A stretch of DNA of 21,120 bases, taken from positions 1 through 21,120 of the IMG/VR virus record IMGVR_UViG_3300037069_000109. One strand, 5' to 3'. Source of the DNA: a virus. Shown here one piece after another: positions 5,467 through 12,662 of the stretch. Within the stretch, counting starts at the first letter, position 1; each line of letters starts with the position of its first letter. The translations under genes were made by a program, and so were the position numbers. The notes under the pieces were generated by a model that had not been told where the DNA came from, searched no databases, and saw only the letters and a program-made list of their open reading frames with translations.

Positions 5467-6081
5467 CTACTCCTTCGGGAGGAACGTGAAAGTCAGCGCG
5501 ACCGTGGAAGTCGAGCCAGACAGGTTGGTGACAGTGATCGGAACCGCGACACCGGAAGGCACGAACCCGGACGCGCCCGCCGTGACGATCTGCGTCCCGG
5601 CCCCTGTGAAGACGATCTCCAGGAAGCACCCGTGGTTCGGCGACGTGGTGGTCGGCAGTGTTCCGGTCGCGCGTGCGGCATCCGCGTCCCGGTGCGTGGT
5701 CGTGTCGTAGAGGCGCACCCGGCAGGCGCGGTCGGCCTGCACGGAGAGGACATCGAACGATGCGGCGAGGTTGACCGTGGATGTCTGCTGCGCCGCGTTC
5801 GCGAGCGAGCTCGAAGTGAATGTGGCCGTCGTCCGGGCAAGAGCGCCAGCGGCTCCGGTAGCGCCTGTTGCTCCCGTGGGTCCAGTTGCTCCCGTGGGTC
5901 CTGCGGGGCCAGTGCTGCCCTGCGGCCCCGTTGCCCCGGTGGCACCCGTTGGGCCAGCCGGCCCCTGTGGCCCCGGCGTGGTGCTAGCCGCGCCAGTGGC
6001 CCCAGGAGCGCCGGGGATGCCCAGGTAAACCTCAACGACGGTCGCCGGGGACGTGACAACCTCAACGACAGAATCGGTCAC
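5467..6081 (-). CDS. Collagen-like minor tail protein
   Basis: The chosen start is GTG 6081, which overlaps the previous stop by 4 bp (GTGA) with GGGTGG upstream, giving 204 residues. A TTG at 6111 would add 10 residues but overlaps the upstream gene by 34 bp. Residues 1-20 are Val-rich. Gly-X-Y repeats run from 21 to about 79 with one break (AASTTP at 31-36), after which about 14 uninterrupted triplets ([12 protein letters not shown] types) follow. The remainder (about 80-204) is a Thr/Ala/Val-rich beta domain. Collagen-like repeats in phage tail proteins form trimeric stalks, so this is probably a fibre shaft with a distal globular end. Confidence 0.8.
5848..5973 (-). repeat. Gly-X-Y coding repeat of the collagen-like protein
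   Basis: A run of 9-nt related units encodes about 14 unbroken Gly-X-Y triplets, mostly GPT, GAT and GPA. Units such as GCTCCCGTGGGTCC on the plus strand recur nearly unchanged, so copy number could vary by slippage or recombination. Confidence 0.75.
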
Positions 6082-6443
6082 GATGCCACCCGCGTATAGT
6101 CGAGCGACCAACGGGTCTTCGCCTCAACGAACGTGCGCGGCTCCCCGTCTGTGCCGATCGCCTCGATGTCGAACCCGCCAGATGCACCCATCGCCCTTGT
6201 CTGGGCGCCAGTCGCGCGAACCACAATGAGCCCGGTCGCCACGTCTGTCACGTCAACTGTCAGGTCGATTGCGGTAGTGGATGGCCGAGACGCGCGCCAC
6301 TGCGACGCGAAGTCCGTGTACGCCGACAGGTCCTCCGGCACTGTGACATCAACATCCGGGTCAGGCTGAACCGTCATACGGAACGCAGCGGACCACCCAT
6401 CGCCCGCCTTCACCGGGAGCGGCGTCGAATAAACAGCGACCAT
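6078..6443 (-). CDS. Putative minor tail protein, 121 aa
   Basis: A 121-residue protein from ATG 6443, three bases after the stop of the S74-type fibre gene; the AGGGGA site overlaps that upstream coding end. It has an N-terminal stretch ([14 protein letters not shown]) and alternating hydrophobic strands with Asp/Thr-rich turns, suggesting a compact beta-sandwich. A domain of this size between fibre genes resembles the small baseplate-upper or fibre-adaptor proteins found next to collagen-like fibres. No diagnostic motif is visible. Its stop overlaps the collagen-like gene by 4 bp, so the two are likely made together. Confidence 0.55.
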
Positions 6444-6446
6444 GCG

Positions 6447-7148
6447 CTATCCCCTCTCAAGTTCAGTGATCCGCGCGTGCAACTTCGCCACCTGTGCGAC
6501 CAGTAGCCCGAGGTAATCAATCCCAGCCGGTCGCCCGTCATCATCGAACGTCACGAACCGTTCCGCGTCCGTCCCGATCAGGTCGTCCGCGATATACCCG
6601 AGACGCAGACGGCCAGGGGCTGCGATGTACTCATATTCGACAAGCTCGGGGAAGATCCCAGGCTGGTCCGGGGCGGGGGTGATGTTCTGCTTCAGGTGGC
6701 GGGCCGAGGGGTTGGAGAACGTGCCCGGAACTACTACCGTGTCCCCGCTCGTGCCCAACATGACCTGATTGGCCGCGGTGGTTGCCGAGTCCGCCCCGAG
6801 CGCCGTACTCCCTGCATGCCTCGCGTATGCGTGCTTGCCGAGAGCGGTAGCCTCACCGTTTTCCGCCCACGAGTAATGGCCGAACGCGCTGTCGTCATCG
6901 TCAACGGCGAGTGCATACTTGCCGAACGCTGACGTGTTGGCCCCGAGCGCATTCGCGTCAGACCCCGCCGCTGTCGAGTAGTCCCCGTCCGCGAGCGCGT
7001 CCACGCCCAGTTGCACGGACTCAACGCCCGCCCCCGCATGGGAAGAATCCCCGCCACCGACAGGCGCGCTCCCGATCTTCAGCCGCTCAATTTCCTTCCG
7101 GACCCGGCGAAACTCACCGGCCACATCGCCCGCATCGTCAACTGGCAT
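6447..7148 (-). CDS. Tail fibre with YadA-like repeats and S74-type C-terminal chaperone
   Basis: The start is ATG 7148 (GGAGG 7 nt upstream), overlapping the hub gene by 11 bp, giving 233 residues. An N-terminal amphipathic helix with heptad character (about 9-25) probably trimerises and anchors the protein. Residues about 46-131 hold YadA/Hep_Hag-type head repeats (ALG, SAFG, TALG spaced about 14 residues apart), which fold as a left-handed beta-roll in trimeric adhesins. The C-terminus (148-233) matches the endosialidase-type intramolecular chaperone, peptidase S74: SARHLKQN keeps the Ser-x4-Lys dyad (Ser148, Lys153), followed by LGYIADDL and a final coiled-coil helix (YLGLLVAQVAKLHARITELE). 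In that family the domain drives trimer folding and then cleaves itself off just before the Ser. Confidence 0.82.
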   Translation of the reverse strand: MPVDDAGDVAGEFRRVRKEIERLKIGSAPVGGGDSSHAGAGVESVQLGVDALADGDYSTAAGSDANALGANTSAFGKYALAVDDDDSAFGHYSWAENGEATALGKHAYARHAGSTALGADSATTAANQVMLGTSGDTVVVPGTFSNPSARHLKQNITPAPDQPGIFPELVEYEYIAAPGRLRLGYIADDLIGTDAERFVTFDDDGRPAGIDYLGLLVAQVAKLHARITELERG

Positions 7149-8223
7149 TCTGTACCTCCGGCTTGACGGTCGTGCCCATAGAGCCAGACAGGGCAACCAC
7201 CCGAAGATGATTCGTGCCAGCCGACAACCGCTCATGCCCAGACGCAACCGTCGCCCCAAGCAGACTCCCAGGGGCGGCGTACTCTGGGCCGTCTGGGTAG
7301 ATGTTCAACCCAAACGACCATGTTGCTGTCGGGAATTGCAGTGCGGCGAACGTGTGATCGGACGCAGCTTGCAACCGTCCGGCGTCTGTTATGTCGGGGA
7401 AGTTGACCCACGTATCGCGGACGCTGATCTCCGCGGGGCCACCGATACCGCCACCCTCCGTGTACGCCGAGATCGCAGACTTGCCACCCTCACCGAACGC
7501 AAGGACACCGGTCATCTGCCGAACCACGTCCCGTGTGACCTTCAAGTCGAGAACCGGGGACGAATCCCCACGGATCGCGAACGTTGTTTCTGAACCGATC
7601 TCCACTTCGGGAACGCCAACCAGCGTCTCCCACCGCAGATCCCCACCCGTCTTGTAGGGGCGAAGGAAAACCTCGCAACCGTCGTCCTCGATCTGCTTCA
7701 GATGATCCTCAATCTTCAGCCGCTCATCGAACTTCCAGTCAGCCGAGAAACCCCCCGAACCATCAGCGGGACGGTCAATGGGAAGGTAAGCGATCGCAAA
7801 CACCGGATCGAACACCGCGCGGACAGCCCCAGCGTGAGACTTCGACGCGAGAGTCAGAACCGAACTGGTGCCGCCATAGGAATCGACGCCGAACATCATC
7901 CGGTCGTTGAGATACGCCCCGCGAAGCTCGGTGCTCGAAAGTCGCACCGTCCGAGTCTTGTCATCCCACACGTCCCGCTGGATAACCCCGGCATACGCGA
8001 CGTGATCGGTAGCAGCCCACTCCTGAGTGATCGTGTACCGGTTTCCCAGCGTCAGCTCTTCAACTTCAGCCTGAGACAACCCCGAACCGAACGCCTGCAC
8101 CGTGTGATCCCCGGAACCCTGCCCGGAAAGCCGCGTCTGCCATGTGCCATCGCTGCACGGTAGCGTTCCCGCGTAGGTGCCATCGTGCGTGTAGTAGACC
8201 TTGTTAACCCACTCGTCGGTCAC
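7138..8223 (-). CDS. Tail hub / minor tail protein
   Basis: A 361-residue protein starting at GTG 8223 with a 4-bp GTGA overlap onto the distal tail gene. It follows tape measure and distal tail genes, the usual place of the baseplate hub (Tal/gp27-like) protein in siphoviruses. The sequence alternates beta-rich blocks (TYAGTLPCSD..., GNRYTITQEW) with a middle alpha/beta segment (DERLKIEDHLKQIEDDGCEVFLRP) of the type seen in hub domains, and a C-terminal jelly-roll-like part (DHTFAALQFPTATWSFGL). No peptidase motif is visible, so it is likely structural. It should form the tail tip ring through which the tape measure and DNA leave. Confidence 0.7.
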   Translation of the reverse strand: MTDEWVNKVYYTHDGTYAGTLPCSDGTWQTRLSGQGSGDHTVQAFGSGLSQAEVEELTLGNRYTITQEWAATDHVAYAGVIQRDVWDDKTRTVRLSSTELRGAYLNDRMMFGVDSYGGTSSVLTLASKSHAGAVRAVFDPVFAIAYLPIDRPADGSGGFSADWKFDERLKIEDHLKQIEDDGCEVFLRPYKTGGDLRWETLVGVPEVEIGSETTFAIRGDSSPVLDLKVTRDVVRQMTGVLAFGEGGKSAISAYTEGGGIGGPAEISVRDTWVNFPDITDAGRLQAASDHTFAALQFPTATWSFGLNIYPDGPEYAAPGSLLGATVASGHERLSAGTNHLRVVALSGSMGTTVKPEVQNAS

Positions 8224-8648: not shown

Positions 8649-11356
8649 CAGTTCCCCCTCAACGCGAACGCCGTGCGCTCCGCAGAAATACGCCCGATCT
8701 GCTCTTCACTCAGACCGGGTGCCGGCTGAATCACTTGGTTGATGGAGATCGCGGACCCGCCACCGCCGCCAGCCGAGAACCGTGGGATATTCGTCGCGTA
8801 CTGCGGCTGCACAAACCCGCCATCCGCATACCCGCGGATCTTCCCGCCACGGTTGATGTAGTCCAGCGCGGCACGGTTCGACGGGTCCGACATAGCCGAA
8901 GCGGTCGCGATACCCTCACCGTTCGACAGCCACGCCGGGATCGAGTCAGACGTGCCCGTGCCAGGCCCACGCACCAGACCACCGGTAGCGAACCCTTCGC
9001 GGCCACCGCCACTGGGGCCGACGCCGACCACGGGCCGCTTGTCCTGGATGTAGTTCAGCGCATCCTTGATCCGCTGAAGCGCCGCCTCGGTATCGGCGGT
9101 CTGCGCGACGATCTGGATGGTTGCAGAATCGGGGAGGGCGAACACCTTATCCGCGAGGGCCTGCACCTGATCGGCGTTGAACCCCGCTGCCGACGCGGAG
9201 TCCTCGAATGCCTTCCGCTGATCCGCAAGGGTCGCCGCGTACTTATCGGTAGCGTCCTTCGCAGACATCGTTTTCTGGTCGAGTAGGAACTGGGCATCAG
9301 CCGCGGCCTGCGCCTTCTCTGCGACATCGGAGAGCATCGCGGCGTTCTCGGAACCCGCTTCTGTGGTCTCATCCAGGGACGCACCGTACCCGTCAAGGGT
9401 TCCGTGCAGTTCCTCGTAAGCCGCCTTCTGCCGGTCCACTTCCGCCTGAATACCAGCCATCGACTTACGGAAGGCCGCGTTTGTTGACACCGCGTCCTGC
9501 CCGATCCCGTTGGACTCGTTGATCGTGTCAATGAGGGATTTCAGGTTCGCCTGAAGGGTTGCCGCCTGATCTGCGGCGTCCTGATATGCCGTCGCCGCGT
9601 CGGTGGTCTTCTCCGCTGAGTCGCCAGCCGCTTCGGCCTGATCCTTGAAGCTCTGCTTGCTCTTCACGACAGCGCCAGAGAGGCCCACAACATCGTCCAT
9701 CGCTTCGGCGGCACGGCCACCGATGCCCGTGAAGAAGGTGAGCTGGTTGGCAACGCCCGTATTCGCCGCGAGTTTGTGTGTGGCCTCAGCCAGCTTGTCG
9801 CCACCCTCGATAACCGCGTCGGTAAGTTCCTGTTGGGTTATCCCAGCTTCCTTAGCGGCCTCGAATGCGTTCTGCTCGGCAAGCTTCTTTGCAACGAGCT
9901 CGCGGGTGTAGTCCGTGATTGCACCCGTGGTCTCGTCCAGTGTGTCCTTGAACTCAGCCGTGTTCGATGTCGCTTCAGCCTGACGCTGCGCCCAGATCCC
10001 GAACGCGACACCCGCGAGCGCGAGCGCGCCCGATGCCAGTCCGATACCGCGAGCCGCAGACGCCCCGGACACGTTGAGCGTGGAGAGCGCCGACTTGAAC
10101 TGAGCGACCTTCGGTACCGCAATGAGTGCCGCGCCGCCCACGAGCCCCACAACGCCAACCAGACCCGTTAGAGCCAGGCCTACGGTAAGGATCGGTTGCG
10201 GGAGGCTCCCCACCGCGTCCACGATGCCGGTAGCCGCCTGCGTGACCGTACGCAGCGAATCGTTCGCCGCCGACCCGGAACGAATCAGGGCCGTATCGAT
10301 CGCACCGCCCAGCTTCTCGACATCGCCCGACAGGTTGTTGAGACGGTCAGCGGCCACCTTCGCCGCATAGCCCGAGTCGTTCGTCTGGTCGATGTACTTC
10401 TGGATGCCGTCAGCGCCCTGGTCGTAAAGGACGTTCGCGACACGCAGCGCATCGTTACCGAAAATCTGCGCAAGAGCCGCGTTGCGAGTCTCATCCGTGA
10501 GGCCGTTGAGGTTGCCCTTCAGTTGGCCGGCGATCTTGTCGAACGACAGCATCTGCCCGTTCGTGTTGTAGAAGGACAGGTGGTACTTCTCCATCACATC
10601 GCGGGCCTTGTCCGTGGGCGCCTGCAACGCGATCAGCGCCGTCTTCAGTGACGTGCCAGCGTCGGAACCCTTCAGGCCCGCATCCGCGAACGCCGACAGG
10701 ACGCCCGTGGTGTCCTCGATGGACTGACCCGCACCGTGCGCGATGAGGCCCGCCTGGTTGAGAGCGTCCGCGAGATCCTTCACGTCACCGACAGCCTTGC
10801 CGGCACCAGCAGCGAGGAGGTCAGCCACGTGAGGCACATCTTCGCCCTCAAGCTTGAACTGCTTCACCGCGATAGCCGCGATACCCGCCGCGTCCGCAAC
10901 GCTCAGAGCGCCAGCAGCCGCGAGCGAGAGGGCACCCTTCAGCCCGCCGCCGAGAATCTGCTCAGTCGTCAGACCGGCCTTCCCGAGCTCTTCGATAGCG
11001 TTCGCGGCCTCGGTGGCAGAGAACACGGTAGACGCGCCCGCCTCCAACGCCGCCTCACGCAGCTTGCCCATGTTCTCGGTGGTTTCCTGCGTCGCCGCCT
11101 TGACGTTGCTCATGGCCTGGTCGAACTCAGCGAACTTCGACACCGCGAGCCCGAACGCAACCGCAGCGATAGCACCGACAGCAGCAACTCCGACGCCGAT
11201 TTGCGTCATGGCCTGGTGCTGCTTCTCCAGCTTCTCCGCAGTCTCAGCCGCTTCCTTGCCGACCTTCGCAGTGGCGTTCTGCGCCTTCTGCATGTCGGCC
11301 ACGTACCCCGAGACTGCGGCGATCAAAGTCACCTTGGTTACGCGATCGCCCAACAT
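8648..11356 (-). CDS. Tail tape measure protein
   Basis: A 902-residue, Ala-rich helical protein, the longest gene in the window and placed after the chaperones. ATG 11356 is used; a GGGGG run lies just upstream. After a short N-terminal segment and coiled coil (about 20-50) there is a hydrophobic stretch at 51-74. A PhageMin_Tail-type (TP901-family) core spans about 75-320. Two more hydrophobic spans lie near 389-414 and 437-455, and long coiled-coil helices fill about 470-780. The Gly-rich C-terminus (GGGREGFATGGLVRGPGTGTSDSI) is the usual tail-tip-proximal motif. By the rule of about 1.5 angstrom per residue the tail would be near 135 nm. It sets tail length and probably inserts into the membrane at injection. 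No muralytic domain is evident. Confidence 0.93.
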   Translation of the reverse strand: MLGDRVTKVTLIAAVSGYVADMQKAQNATAKVGKEAAETAEKLEKQHQAMTQIGVGVAAVGAIAAVAFGLAVSKFAEFDQAMSNVKAATQETTENMGKLREAALEAGASTVFSATEAANAIEELGKAGLTTEQILGGGLKGALSLAAAGALSVADAAGIAAIAVKQFKLEGEDVPHVADLLAAGAGKAVGDVKDLADALNQAGLIAHGAGQSIEDTTGVLSAFADAGLKGSDAGTSLKTALIALQAPTDKARDVMEKYHLSFYNTNGQMLSFDKIAGQLKGNLNGLTDETRNAALAQIFGNDALRVANVLYDQGADGIQKYIDQTNDSGYAAKVAADRLNNLSGDVEKLGGAIDTALIRSGSAANDSLRTVTQAATGIVDAVGSLPQPILTVGLALTGLVGVVGLVGGAALIAVPKVAQFKSALSTLNVSGASAARGIGLASGALALAGVAFGIWAQRQAEATSNTAEFKDTLDETTGAITDYTRELVAKKLAEQNAFEAAKEAGITQQELTDAVIEGGDKLAEATHKLAANTGVANQLTFFTGIGGRAAEAMDDVVGLSGAVVKSKQSFKDQAEAAGDSAEKTTDAATAYQDAADQAATLQANLKSLIDTINESNGIGQDAVSTNAAFRKSMAGIQAEVDRQKAAYEELHGTLDGYGASLDETTEAGSENAAMLSDVAEKAQAAADAQFLLDQKTMSAKDATDKYAATLADQRKAFEDSASAAGFNADQVQALADKVFALPDSATIQIVAQTADTEAALQRIKDALNYIQDKRPVVGVGPSGGGREGFATGGLVRGPGTGTSDSIPAWLSNGEGIATASAMSDPSNRAALDYINRGGKIRGYADGGFVQPQYATNIPRFSAGGGGGSAISINQVIQPAPGLSEEQIGRISAERTAFALRGN

Positions 11357-11364
11357 GCACCCCC

Positions 11365-11390
11365 AGGAGGTAATAGTGTTCGGGGCATGA
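11365..11390 (+). promoter_or_regulatory. Ribosome site and 4-codon leader (or -10 of a leaderless start) for the lipoprotein
   Basis: AGGAGG (11365-11370) is 16 nt from the lipoprotein ATG, too far to serve it directly, but only 5 nt from a GTG at 11376. That GTG opens a 4-codon frame (GTG TTC GGG GCA TGA) whose stop overlaps the lipoprotein ATG as ATGA (11387-11390). Alternatively TAGTGT (11374-11379) fits an actinobacterial TANNNT -10 element placed 7 bp before the ATG, as for a leaderless transcript. No good -35 is seen. Confidence 0.4.
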
Positions 11391-11695
11391 AACGCGCCCT
11401 CGTCGTGCTGGTATCGGTGCTGCTGTTAACCGGGTGTGCCGCACCTACTGCGGACAGCGCATACCTCTCGACGGTGCGCGAGAGCATCCCCGCACTAGCC
11501 GATGTCCCCGATGAGGACTTGACCGGGCTGGGCGCGAAGGTCTGCGACCTGTTCGACACGGGAGGGTTTACCGATGGACTTACCGAGTTCATCGCGCGGG
11601 CGAAGGACTACGGATTCACCGCGAAAGAAGCGGGCGGGATAGCGGGTGCCGCGACCGCCGCCTACTGCCCCGAATACTCGGACGGCTTCGGGTAG
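11387..11695 (+). CDS. DUF732-like lipoprotein, moron candidate
   Basis: The only convincing plus-strand gene. It encodes 102 residues. It opens with a lipoprotein signal: basic MKR, a hydrophobic core (ALVVLVSVLLL) and a lipobox LTGC with Cys17 as the lipidated residue. The mature part follows the DUF732 pattern of small secreted actinobacterial proteins: YLSTVRESIPALADVPDEDL, then LGAKVCDLFDTG, a helix, and an Ala-rich end with AAYCPEY. Cys53 and Cys94 probably form a disulfide outside the cell. The gene lies in the 305-bp gap between the tail assembly chaperone and the tape measure gene. It diverges from the tape measure start by 30 bp and its 3' end overlaps the chaperone 3' end by 34 bp. 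Late transcription therefore runs antisense to it. It is probably expressed on its own, perhaps from a prophage. A superinfection-exclusion role is inference. The DUF732 match is by eye. Confidence 0.82.
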   Translation: MKRALVVLVSVLLLTGCAAPTADSAYLSTVRESIPALADVPDEDLTGLGAKVCDLFDTGGFTDGLTEFIARAKDYGFTAKEAGGIAGAATAAYCPEYSDGFG

Positions 11696-12629
11696 TCGAA
11701 CCGTTCCGCCGTGAAGTAGACGCCGTTGAGGTTCGCGCCTTCACCCATCGCCTTGCGGTGCTCTTCGAGCGCGTCAGCCTTTGCCCGCTCAGCCCAGTTC
11801 GTGAACGGGCCTTGAGCCATATACCGGTACCCGCTGTAAGCGTTCGGGTCCGCGGCCTCCGCGGTCGCATCAGGCAACCACTCGCCATTCGGCCCAGTCA
11901 TCCGGCGAACAATGTCCTCCGCAACCACAAGGCCGCGGGACTCGTCATCCCACTCAGACTCAGTAACCGACGAGACCATGCGGCCAGCGTCGTCGTACTC
12001 GTAGAACGTTCGTGGCTCCCACCCCCAGAGTCGCCGTGGGGCGATGCCGGAGCGTGCGGCGAAAGCTACTTCTTGACGGAGCGCAACGCTACTCCTCAGC
12101 CTTTTACTAGGGCCTGAAGCCTTTGCTCGGGCTCGAACTCGTTGAGCTCCCACACGATGTCGCGCAGTTTCGCGTACTCGTTACCAGACAGGACCGAGAC
12201 CAACTGCGACCATTCTTCGTCGCTGATCCCAACGGGCTCGCCGTCCTCAAGGCGGAAAGCGAACGCCTCCCCGGAAGGCTCGCGGTATCGAAGCGCCGCC
12301 TCGCACACCGCGTCGTAGTTGTAGCCGTAATGCTTATCCATCGGCACGTCGAGACGCGCGGGACACTTGGAAGTCAGGTTCGCCCAGTCGCGACCCGGCA
12401 TGCGGAACACGCGGATAGTCACGCTTGAGTCATCCCCGGCGATCTCGTCCAGACGCTCCCGAGCCTTGTCGGCGTTCGAGACCACGCCCATGCGCTCGTC
12501 TCCGGTATCGGCTTCCAGTTCCGCCTCAAGGGCTTCCCGTTCCGCACTCACCGTGCCATCAAGAATGACAGCCTGATCCTTGAACGGACGCGCAGCCTTA
12601 GCCGCCGCCAACTTCTCTGCAAAAGTCAC
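11662..12629 (-). CDS. Tail assembly chaperone, long frameshifted form (GT-type)
   Basis: The upstream frame (from GTG 12629) and a downstream frame in the -1 register overlap. The downstream frame stays open from 12153 to its stop at 11662 and lacks its own ribosome site and start near the junction. A -1 slip at GTAAAAG (12101-12107) would join 176 residues of the short protein to 146 more (RLRSSVALRQ... ending KPSEYSGQ), giving about 322 residues. Two overlapping frames between the major tail protein and the tape measure gene are the hallmark of the lambda G/GT system, where a small share of ribosomes makes the long form. Both forms bind tape measure protein and recruit tail subunits. The exact slip position is inferred. 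Confidence 0.75.
11679..11708 (+). terminator. Stem-loop over the lipoprotein stop codon
   Basis: CGGACGG (11679-11685) pairs with CCGTTCCG (11701-11708, one bulged T). Inside this TTCG (87-90) pairs with CGAA (97-100 of the same hundred), leaving a 6-nt loop that contains the lipoprotein TAG. There is no T-run, so termination is a guess. It would keep plus-strand transcripts from running deep into the antisense of the chaperone gene. Confidence 0.3.
12096..12629 (-). CDS. Tail assembly chaperone, short form (G-type)
   Basis: A 177-residue protein. GTG 12629 is preferred because GGAG lies 5 nt upstream; a GTG at 12650 would add 7 residues but has no ribosome site. The product begins MTFAEKLAAAKAARPFKDQ, a common chaperone opening, and has a helical acidic segment (REALEAELEADTGDER), a central beta region (SSVTIRVFRMPGRDW), and a C-terminal helical part ending in WELNEFEPEQRLQALVKG. 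Composition and place between major tail protein and tape measure gene match lambda G. It should coat the tape measure protein during tail assembly and be absent from virions. The stop TGA directly follows the proposed slip site. Confidence 0.8.
   Translation of the reverse strand: MTFAEKLAAAKAARPFKDQAVILDGTVSAEREALEAELEADTGDERMGVVSNADKARERLDEIAGDDSSVTIRVFRMPGRDWANLTSKCPARLDVPMDKHYGYNYDAVCEAALRYREPSGEAFAFRLEDGEPVGISDEEWSQLVSVLSGNEYAKLRDIVWELNEFEPEQRLQALVKG
12101..12107 (-). other. Probable -1 frameshift site GTAAAAG
   Basis: In the zero frame the codons are CTA GTA AAA GGC TGA. A -1 slip lets Lys-tRNA re-pair AAA with AAA while Val-tRNA would mispair, so the heptamer is non-canonical. Two codons on, the zero frame stops. 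An AAAGG Shine-Dalgarno-like run lies about 15 nt upstream, and a small stem (GGA with TCC, GCG with CGC, TTG loop) begins about 6 nt downstream; both are known kinds of stimulators. Confidence 0.55.
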
Positions 12630-12662
12630 TTCTACTCCACCGTTGTCCACCGTAGGAAGTGA

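What the first reader, a model, noticed from the sequence alone, without database searches (positions are those of the whole stretch)
11387..11695. Plus-strand lipoprotein gene inserted between the tail chaperone and tape measure genes
This is the only gene facing against the late operon. Seen: a clear lipoprotein signal (LTGC, Cys17), two further cysteines, and a DUF732-like mature domain; it starts 30 bp from the tape measure start and overlaps the chaperone 3' end. Established: some phages encode surface lipoproteins that block superinfection, and the Streptococcus phage TP-J34 lipoprotein Ltp acts against a tape measure protein during DNA injection. Inference: this is a moron made outside the lytic cycle that could block injection by related phages, with the neighbouring tape measure gene as linked target. 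Late transcription would be antisense to it and could silence it during lysis.
Basis: partly seen in the sequence, partly recalled or inferred. Interest (0 to 1): 0.82.

Follow-up and report, generated by a model that had tools for sequence, protein, structure and literature searches.

The report
Prophage lipoprotein gene beside tape measure
A temperate actinobacterial phage carries, backwards inside its tail-gene operon and next to the gene that guides DNA injection, a small gene for a surface lipoprotein; related phages use this same spot, often with the same kind of promoter, to carry swappable and unrelated envelope proteins, most likely to let the infected cell shut out rival phages.

Summary
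ATG 11387 to stop 11695 encodes a 102-aa DUF732 lipoprotein (PF05305 38.4 bits, cut-off 22.4; LPAM_1 above cut-off; C17 lipobox plus C53 and C94). It faces the late operon, 30 nt from the tape measure (TMP) start. It is no chance ORF: relatives sit in the same place and orientation in over a dozen viral contigs, and dN/dS among close ones is about 0.1-0.2. The larger finding is the site. In temperate relatives the slot between chaperone and TMP is empty or holds a reverse-facing gene of one of several unrelated kinds: four lipoprotein families, small two-TM proteins, a few soluble ones. A promoter-first scan of 125 loci put 54 TANNNT-N5..8-ATG-ORF sites in the 200-bp bin before the TMP start, against 0-5 per bin elsewhere. 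The window has TAGTGT 7 nt before ATG, a leaderless-type promoter. Of 48 distinct slot hits, 41 look like envelope proteins, against 10 of 34 elsewhere. So it is a moron-type cargo site. Superinfection exclusion at DNA injection (HK97 gp15 occupies the same slot; TP-J34 Ltp is a lipoprotein acting on TMP) is the best mechanism, but is inferred. TMP-lipoprotein co-variation was not seen among close relatives.

The parts
11387..11695 (+). DUF732 lipoprotein gene, 102 aa, lipobox LTGC (C17), conserved C53 and C94
   Evidence: homologues in same slot; purifying selection
11374..11379 (+). TAGTGT, -10 box (TANNNT) 7 nt before ATG, placed for a leaderless mRNA; lies in the 30-nt gap between the two start codons
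   Evidence: TANNNT centred 7-12 bp before the start site and no -35 motif are the pattern mapped in M. tuberculosis (PMC3898074)
8648..11356 (-). Tape measure protein, 902 aa, start codon 30 nt from the lipoprotein start codon, divergent
11662..12153 (-). Downstream frame of the tail assembly chaperone; its 3' end overlaps the lipoprotein 3' end by 34 nt (convergent)
   Evidence: by position and by annotation of relatives; no family hit
12096..12650 (-). Upstream frame of the tail assembly chaperone (probably joined to the next by a frameshift)
   Evidence: by position and annotation of relatives

Best explanation
This is a cargo (moron) gene of a temperate actinobacterial siphovirus, carried in a dedicated, reverse-facing slot between the tail chaperone and tape measure genes. 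It has its own TANNNT promoter, set so close to the ATG that the mRNA should be leaderless, so it can be made when the late operon is silent, that is in the lysogen (shown: slot, promoter sequence, conservation; inferred: expression in the lysogen). The product should be exported, lipidated at Cys17 and held on the outer face of the cytoplasmic membrane as a small helical domain (inferred from sequence and a predicted model). There it most likely protects the lysogen from further phages by interfering with entry of DNA from siphoviruses, a step in which the tape measure acts (inferred). The slot's content is swapped between unrelated envelope proteins across relatives, as expected of an arms-race locus.
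For: Lipoprotein and DUF732 signatures. Same gene, same slot and orientation in relatives: L003, L012-15, L018-21, L023, L030, L057, L082; L016 and L036 keep it across an inserted HNH gene. dN/dS about 0.1-0.2. At least three other lipoprotein families (L042/L055/L062/L069; L063; L075) and many small TM proteins in the same slot. Profile comparison of two lipoprotein families aligns only their signal peptides. Promoter-first scan: 54 sites in the slot bin against 0-5 in any other 200-bp bin; 41 of 48 distinct slot products look like envelope proteins against 10 of 34 elsewhere, Fisher p 5e-7. Empty slots in several relatives and at least 23 changes of slot content on the TMP tree. Integrase in 16 of 18 contigs. 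HK97 gp15 sits between tail genes and TMP and blocks DNA injection; HK97 hybrids with HK022 tail tube and tape genes escape it, and TP-J34 escapers change the TMP (PMC10883804). Ltp acts through the TMP (PMC3952083).
Against: No expression or phenotype data. The window carries no integrase or repressor of its own that was recognised (21-kb fragment). No similarity to Ltp or any PADLOC family. No terminator found. No TMP-lipoprotein co-variation among close relatives. A few slot genes are soluble (DUF4177-like), which fits envelope exclusion poorly.
Confidence: 0.5

Rival explanations
1. Lysogenic conversion unrelated to phage exclusion: the envelope proteins change host surface or stress physiology to the lysogen's benefit.
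For: DUF732 is a known actinobacterial domain outside phages (family knowledge). Slot products are mostly envelope proteins of many unrelated kinds. Slot empty in some relatives.
Against: Recurrent choice of the slot beside TMP needs a separate reason; nine of ten related host genomes have no DUF732 match of their own, so it does not look like a copy of a common host function.
Confidence: 0.27
2. Neutral or selfish passenger: the slot is simply a tolerated insertion point in the late operon and the position next to TMP has no functional meaning.
For: HNH endonuclease genes also land here. Content turns over quickly.
Against: Purifying selection, conserved orientation and promoter (no sense-strand hits in the slot), strong bias to envelope proteins.
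Confidence: 0.12
3. Regulator of the late operon: reverse transcription through the slot or the overlapping start regions tunes tape measure expression, and the protein is secondary.
For: Promoter lies 18 nt from the TMP start codon; convergent 3' ends; dyads over the -10 box in a subset of relatives.
Against: The protein is under purifying selection. The transcript runs away from TMP, so it is antisense only to the chaperone end. The window has no dyad, and the GCCCCT-type dyad occurs once per phage.
Confidence: 0.05
4. Virion or lysis function: a late, tail-associated lipoprotein or a spanin-like lysis protein.
For: Weak PHROG hits to spanins and to Cor lipoproteins; neighbours are tail genes.
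Against: Those hits cover mainly the signal peptide. The gene faces against the late operon and is absent from relatives with an intact tail module. The likely hosts are Gram-positive.
Confidence: 0.04

Closest known systems
HK97 gp15 (moron, superinfection exclusion, E. coli phage HK97)
   Same: A small extra gene exactly between the tail chaperone frames and the tape measure gene, annotated 'moron product' with a terminator; an envelope protein; [quoted passage not shown]
   Different: HK97 gp15 is a predicted inner membrane protein in a Gram-negative host, on the same strand as the late operon; no DUF732 domain or lipobox is reported for it.
TP-J34 Ltp (Streptococcus thermophilus phage exclusion lipoprotein)
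   Same: A lipoprotein of a temperate Gram-positive phage; blocks DNA injection; acts through the tape measure protein (PMC3952083).
   Different: No sequence relation found; fold relation not shown; the cited paper lists TP-J34's chaperone frames and tmp as adjacent, so Ltp is not in this slot.
Reverse genes in the chaperone-TMP slot of Gordonia cluster DN phages (Periwinkle) and of Arthrobacter and Microbacterium phages (Seahorse, RadFad, Eileen, Tiff81, Kukla, Footloose)
   Same: Same slot and orientation. The Periwinkle paper states that all cluster DN phages have at least one reverse gene there (PMC9476921).
   Different: Annotated hypothetical or membrane protein with no function proposed; none of those read is a DUF732 lipoprotein. 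Some have a ribosome site rather than a leaderless start.
Mycobacteriophage cluster O promoter PL2
   Same: A predicted leaderless SigA-like promoter driving a reverse gene inside the structural operon (PMC4351075).
   Different: Drives a putative DNA-binding protein elsewhere in the operon, not an envelope protein beside TMP.
DUF732 proteins (PF05305)
   Same: Domain match over the cut-off; conserved cysteines.
   Different: Phage-borne, with a lipobox, and placed in a moron slot.

Membership tests
DUF732 (PF05305) | Whole-protein score over the curated cut-off | tested here: met
   38.4 bits against 22.4, residues 22-96
DUF732 (PF05305) | Conserved cysteine pair in the mature domain | tested here: met
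   C53 and C94 invariant in 15 aligned phage sequences
Bacterial lipoprotein | Signal peptide with lipobox near the N-terminus | tested here: met
   LPAM_1 20.4 bits against 20; LTGC with C17 kept in relatives
Bacterial lipoprotein | Lipid modification and surface location | not testable with these tools
   needs labelling or cell fractionation
Moron | Extra gene between two genes that are adjacent in relatives | tested here: met
   empty slots, e.g. L025, L027, L087, L010
Moron | Own promoter | tested here: met
   TANNNT 7 nt before ATG, shared across unrelated slot genes; sequence evidence only
Moron | Own terminator | tested here: not met
   no terminator-like site 11200-12200; the convergent genes overlap. 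For this reason the report says 'moron-type' and not a full moron
Moron | Expressed in the lysogen | not testable with these tools
   needs RNA-seq of lysogens
Ltp-type exclusion lipoprotein | Sequence similarity to the Ltp family | tested here: not met
   no Ltp family among Pfam hits at E up to 1
Ltp-type exclusion lipoprotein | Same fold as Ltp repeats | tested here: inconclusive
   all-helical model, pLDDT 86; no confident PDB match
Ltp-type exclusion lipoprotein | Blocks DNA injection through the tape measure protein | not testable with these tools
   needs infection assays and escape mutants
HK97 gp15-type exclusion moron | Gene between tail chaperone and tape measure | tested here: met
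HK97 gp15-type exclusion moron | Predicted inner membrane protein encoded on the late strand | tested here: not met
   lipoprotein on the opposite strand

The most novel reading that the evidence does not exclude
A standard cargo site in temperate actinobacterial siphoviruses: a reverse-facing, mostly leaderless promoter at the tape measure start drives interchangeable exclusion proteins (lipoproteins or two-TM proteins of many families) that act on the injection machinery of which the adjacent tape measure is part, so that entry gene and entry blocker can travel together as one cassette.
Probability: 0.3. Interest if true: 0.8.

Novelty: new variant of a known kind. Interest (0 to 1): 0.64.

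Why it matters
If true, one genomic coordinate, the gap before the tape measure gene, would be a ready finder for exclusion proteins in actinobacterial prophages, and would make the old idea that entry blockers travel with their target gene testable at scale. Isolated phages with the slot gene exist on laboratory hosts (Footloose, Eileen, Tiff81), and their slot genes are filed as hypothetical or simply membrane protein.

Tried and rejected
Near-identical DNA in phage records: none. PADLOC defence models: none. Fold search of the DUF732 model: best Z 6.9 to a GIPC1 GH2 domain, within what unrelated helical bundles give. Sequence search of PDB: nothing significant. Sigma-70 and terminator scan: nothing (the tool's consensus needs a -35, which actinobacterial promoters often lack). 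Dyad over the -10 as a shared immunity operator: present in 9 of 43 slot promoters with arms of 5 or more (1.3 expected), absent in the window; the GCCCCT dyad occurs once per phage, so not an immunity-type repeated operator. TMP-lipoprotein co-variation: not seen among close relatives; the r 0.91 with W and L023 added only reflects deeper shared descent. A DUF732 match in the L095 host genome was not located relative to the prophage; the reverse ORF checked there is a different protein. The 'TM' labels were partly chosen by hydrophobicity, so the envelope bias is quoted only from the promoter-first scan. L036 was labelled HNH but also holds a DUF732 lipoprotein.

Full report
The observation. 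The plus-strand ORF 11387-11695 is present as described. It encodes a 102-residue protein with a lipobox (LTGC, Cys17), two further cysteines (C53, C94) and a DUF732 domain over Pfam's gathering score; the lipoprotein-site model is also over its cut-off. The start codon is 30 nt from the divergent start codon of the 902-aa tape measure protein (TMP), and its 3' end overlaps the convergent minus-strand frame 11662-12153 by 34 nt. That frame has no family hit; it is called the chaperone by position and because relatives are annotated so.

It is a real gene. TMP relatives fetched from viral contigs carry a homologue in the same slot and orientation: first L003 (31% identity), then a group at 57-73% identity (L012-15, L018-21, L023, L057, L082) plus L030. 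In L016 and L036 an HNH endonuclease gene lies between the lipoprotein and TMP, yet the lipoprotein is kept. Pairwise dN/dS among close relatives is 0.01-0.25. L036 is notable: its lipoprotein is 56% identical to the window's over 86 residues, but its TMP is only 43% identical in the best tblastn segment, so the gene moves between TMP lineages or was gained more than once.

The slot is the larger finding. In other relatives the same gap before TMP holds reverse-facing genes of unrelated kinds. There are three further lipoprotein families: L042/L055/L062/L069, L063 with near-copies, and L075. Profile comparison of the DUF732 family with the L042 family aligns only the signal peptides. Many others are small proteins with one or two predicted membrane helices, and a few are soluble, DUF4177-like. 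Several relatives have no gene there: the chaperone frame ends within about 60 nt of TMP. On a TMP tree of 72 rows the slot content needs at least 23 changes; pairs such as L006 (empty) and L009 (occupied) are sisters with full support. This is the pattern of a cargo or moron site.

The promoter. Upstream of every slot lipoprotein gene lies TANNNT 6-7 nt before the ATG; in the window it is TAGTGT at 11374-11379. A scan that starts from this pattern alone (TANNNT-N5..8-ATG-ORF of at least 40 aa, strand opposite the late operon) found 54 sites in the 200-bp bin just before the TMP start and 0-5 in any other bin, over 125 loci, some of them overlapping copies of one contig. After collapsing, 45 distinct sites were listed; only 8 have a ribosome-site-like motif, and C precedes the ATG in 40. 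With spacings of 6-8, 41 of 48 distinct slot products have a lipobox or a membrane segment, against 10 of 34 elsewhere, and none lies on the sense strand in the slot (Fisher p 5e-7). In M. tuberculosis, TANNNT centred 7-12 bp before the start site with no -35 motif is the common promoter, and about a quarter of genes with a primary start site are leaderless (PMC3898074). So a leaderless mRNA is the natural reading; it is not shown here. The scan rule was written after looking at the lipoprotein genes, but it was then applied blind to the whole set, and the membrane-protein genes it found had not been used to define it.

Temperate context. The window is a 21-kb fragment of a viral record in which no lysogeny gene was recognised, but 16 of 18 related contigs, including the closest (L012, L014, L016, L023), encode a tyrosine integrase. 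TMP relatives occur in genomes of Microbacterium, Curtobacterium, Herbiconiux, Cellulomonas and others, so the host is most likely an actinobacterium of the Microbacteriaceae (inference).

Isolated phages. Arthrobacter phages Seahorse, RadFad, Eileen, Tiff81 and Kukla and Microbacterium phage Footloose have a reverse gene in the same slot, annotated hypothetical or membrane protein. Footloose and Eileen show the TANNNT-N6/7-ATG form; Seahorse and RadFad have a leader with a ribosome site. A genome announcement notes that all Gordonia cluster DN phages have at least one reverse gene there, without a function (PMC9476921). The slot as such is therefore known in passing; its promoter and its bias to envelope proteins were not found described in the papers searched.

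Mechanism. HK97 gp15 is a moron between the tail chaperone frames and TMP. [quoted passage not shown] TP-J34 Ltp is a lipoprotein that blocks injection and is escaped by TMP changes (PMC10883804; PMC3952083). By analogy the window's gene most likely makes a lysogen-expressed lipoprotein that interferes with DNA entry of further siphoviruses. What is shown: gene, slot, promoter sequence, selection, turnover, temperate relatives. What is inferred: expression in the lysogen, surface location, exclusion, the TMP as target.

Limits. Ltp membership is not supported. The predicted model (pLDDT 86, helical) has no confident structural match. Lipoprotein and TMP distances do not correlate among nine close relatives (r 0.13, p 0.26); one TMP window of 15 reached p 0.02, as chance would allow. 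Antisense silencing by late transcription is plausible from the convergent layout but untested. No terminator was found.

Noticed in passing
L003, L030, L008, L069, L040, L061, L068, L071, L080, about 15-25 nt before the slot gene ATG: Nine of 43 slot promoters carry a perfect inverted repeat (arms of 5-6) around the -10 box, e.g. GCCCCT-ACGATG-AGGGGC-ATG; 1.3 expected from shuffles. The GCCCCT form occurs once per phage. A local operator or 5' hairpin is possible; the window lacks it.
   Followed up: partly
slot promoters of L003, L008, L030, L035, L045, L049, L081 and others: TANNNT-CAGCGC-ATG recurs before unrelated slot genes, yet is found only 4 times in six related host genomes (about 23 Mb), one of them about 6 kb past the TMP start in L094, before a GntR-like gene.
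   Followed up: partly
L016, L036, L136 (Footloose gp16): HNH endonuclease genes are inserted between the reverse slot gene and TMP in three separate phages.
   Followed up: partly
L142 (Arthrobacter phage Pitbull), between the chaperone end and TMP: An unannotated reverse ORF with membrane-like segments (starts MAQLGDVHKKRGSNIMKTGAGMLVFGIAVALF) sits in the slot; probably a missed gene.
   Followed up: no
window 5467-6111 (-): Tail-region protein with collagen-like GPxGATG repeats.
   Followed up: no
window 6447-7259 (-): Minor tail protein with a C-terminal stretch that looks like an S74-type self-cleaving chaperone domain (by eye).
   Followed up: no
L128, L131, L132 and Streptomyces phages Riptide, LazerLemon and others: DUF732-like proteins also occur in other phages, including large Streptomyces phages; their context was not worked out.
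   Followed up: no
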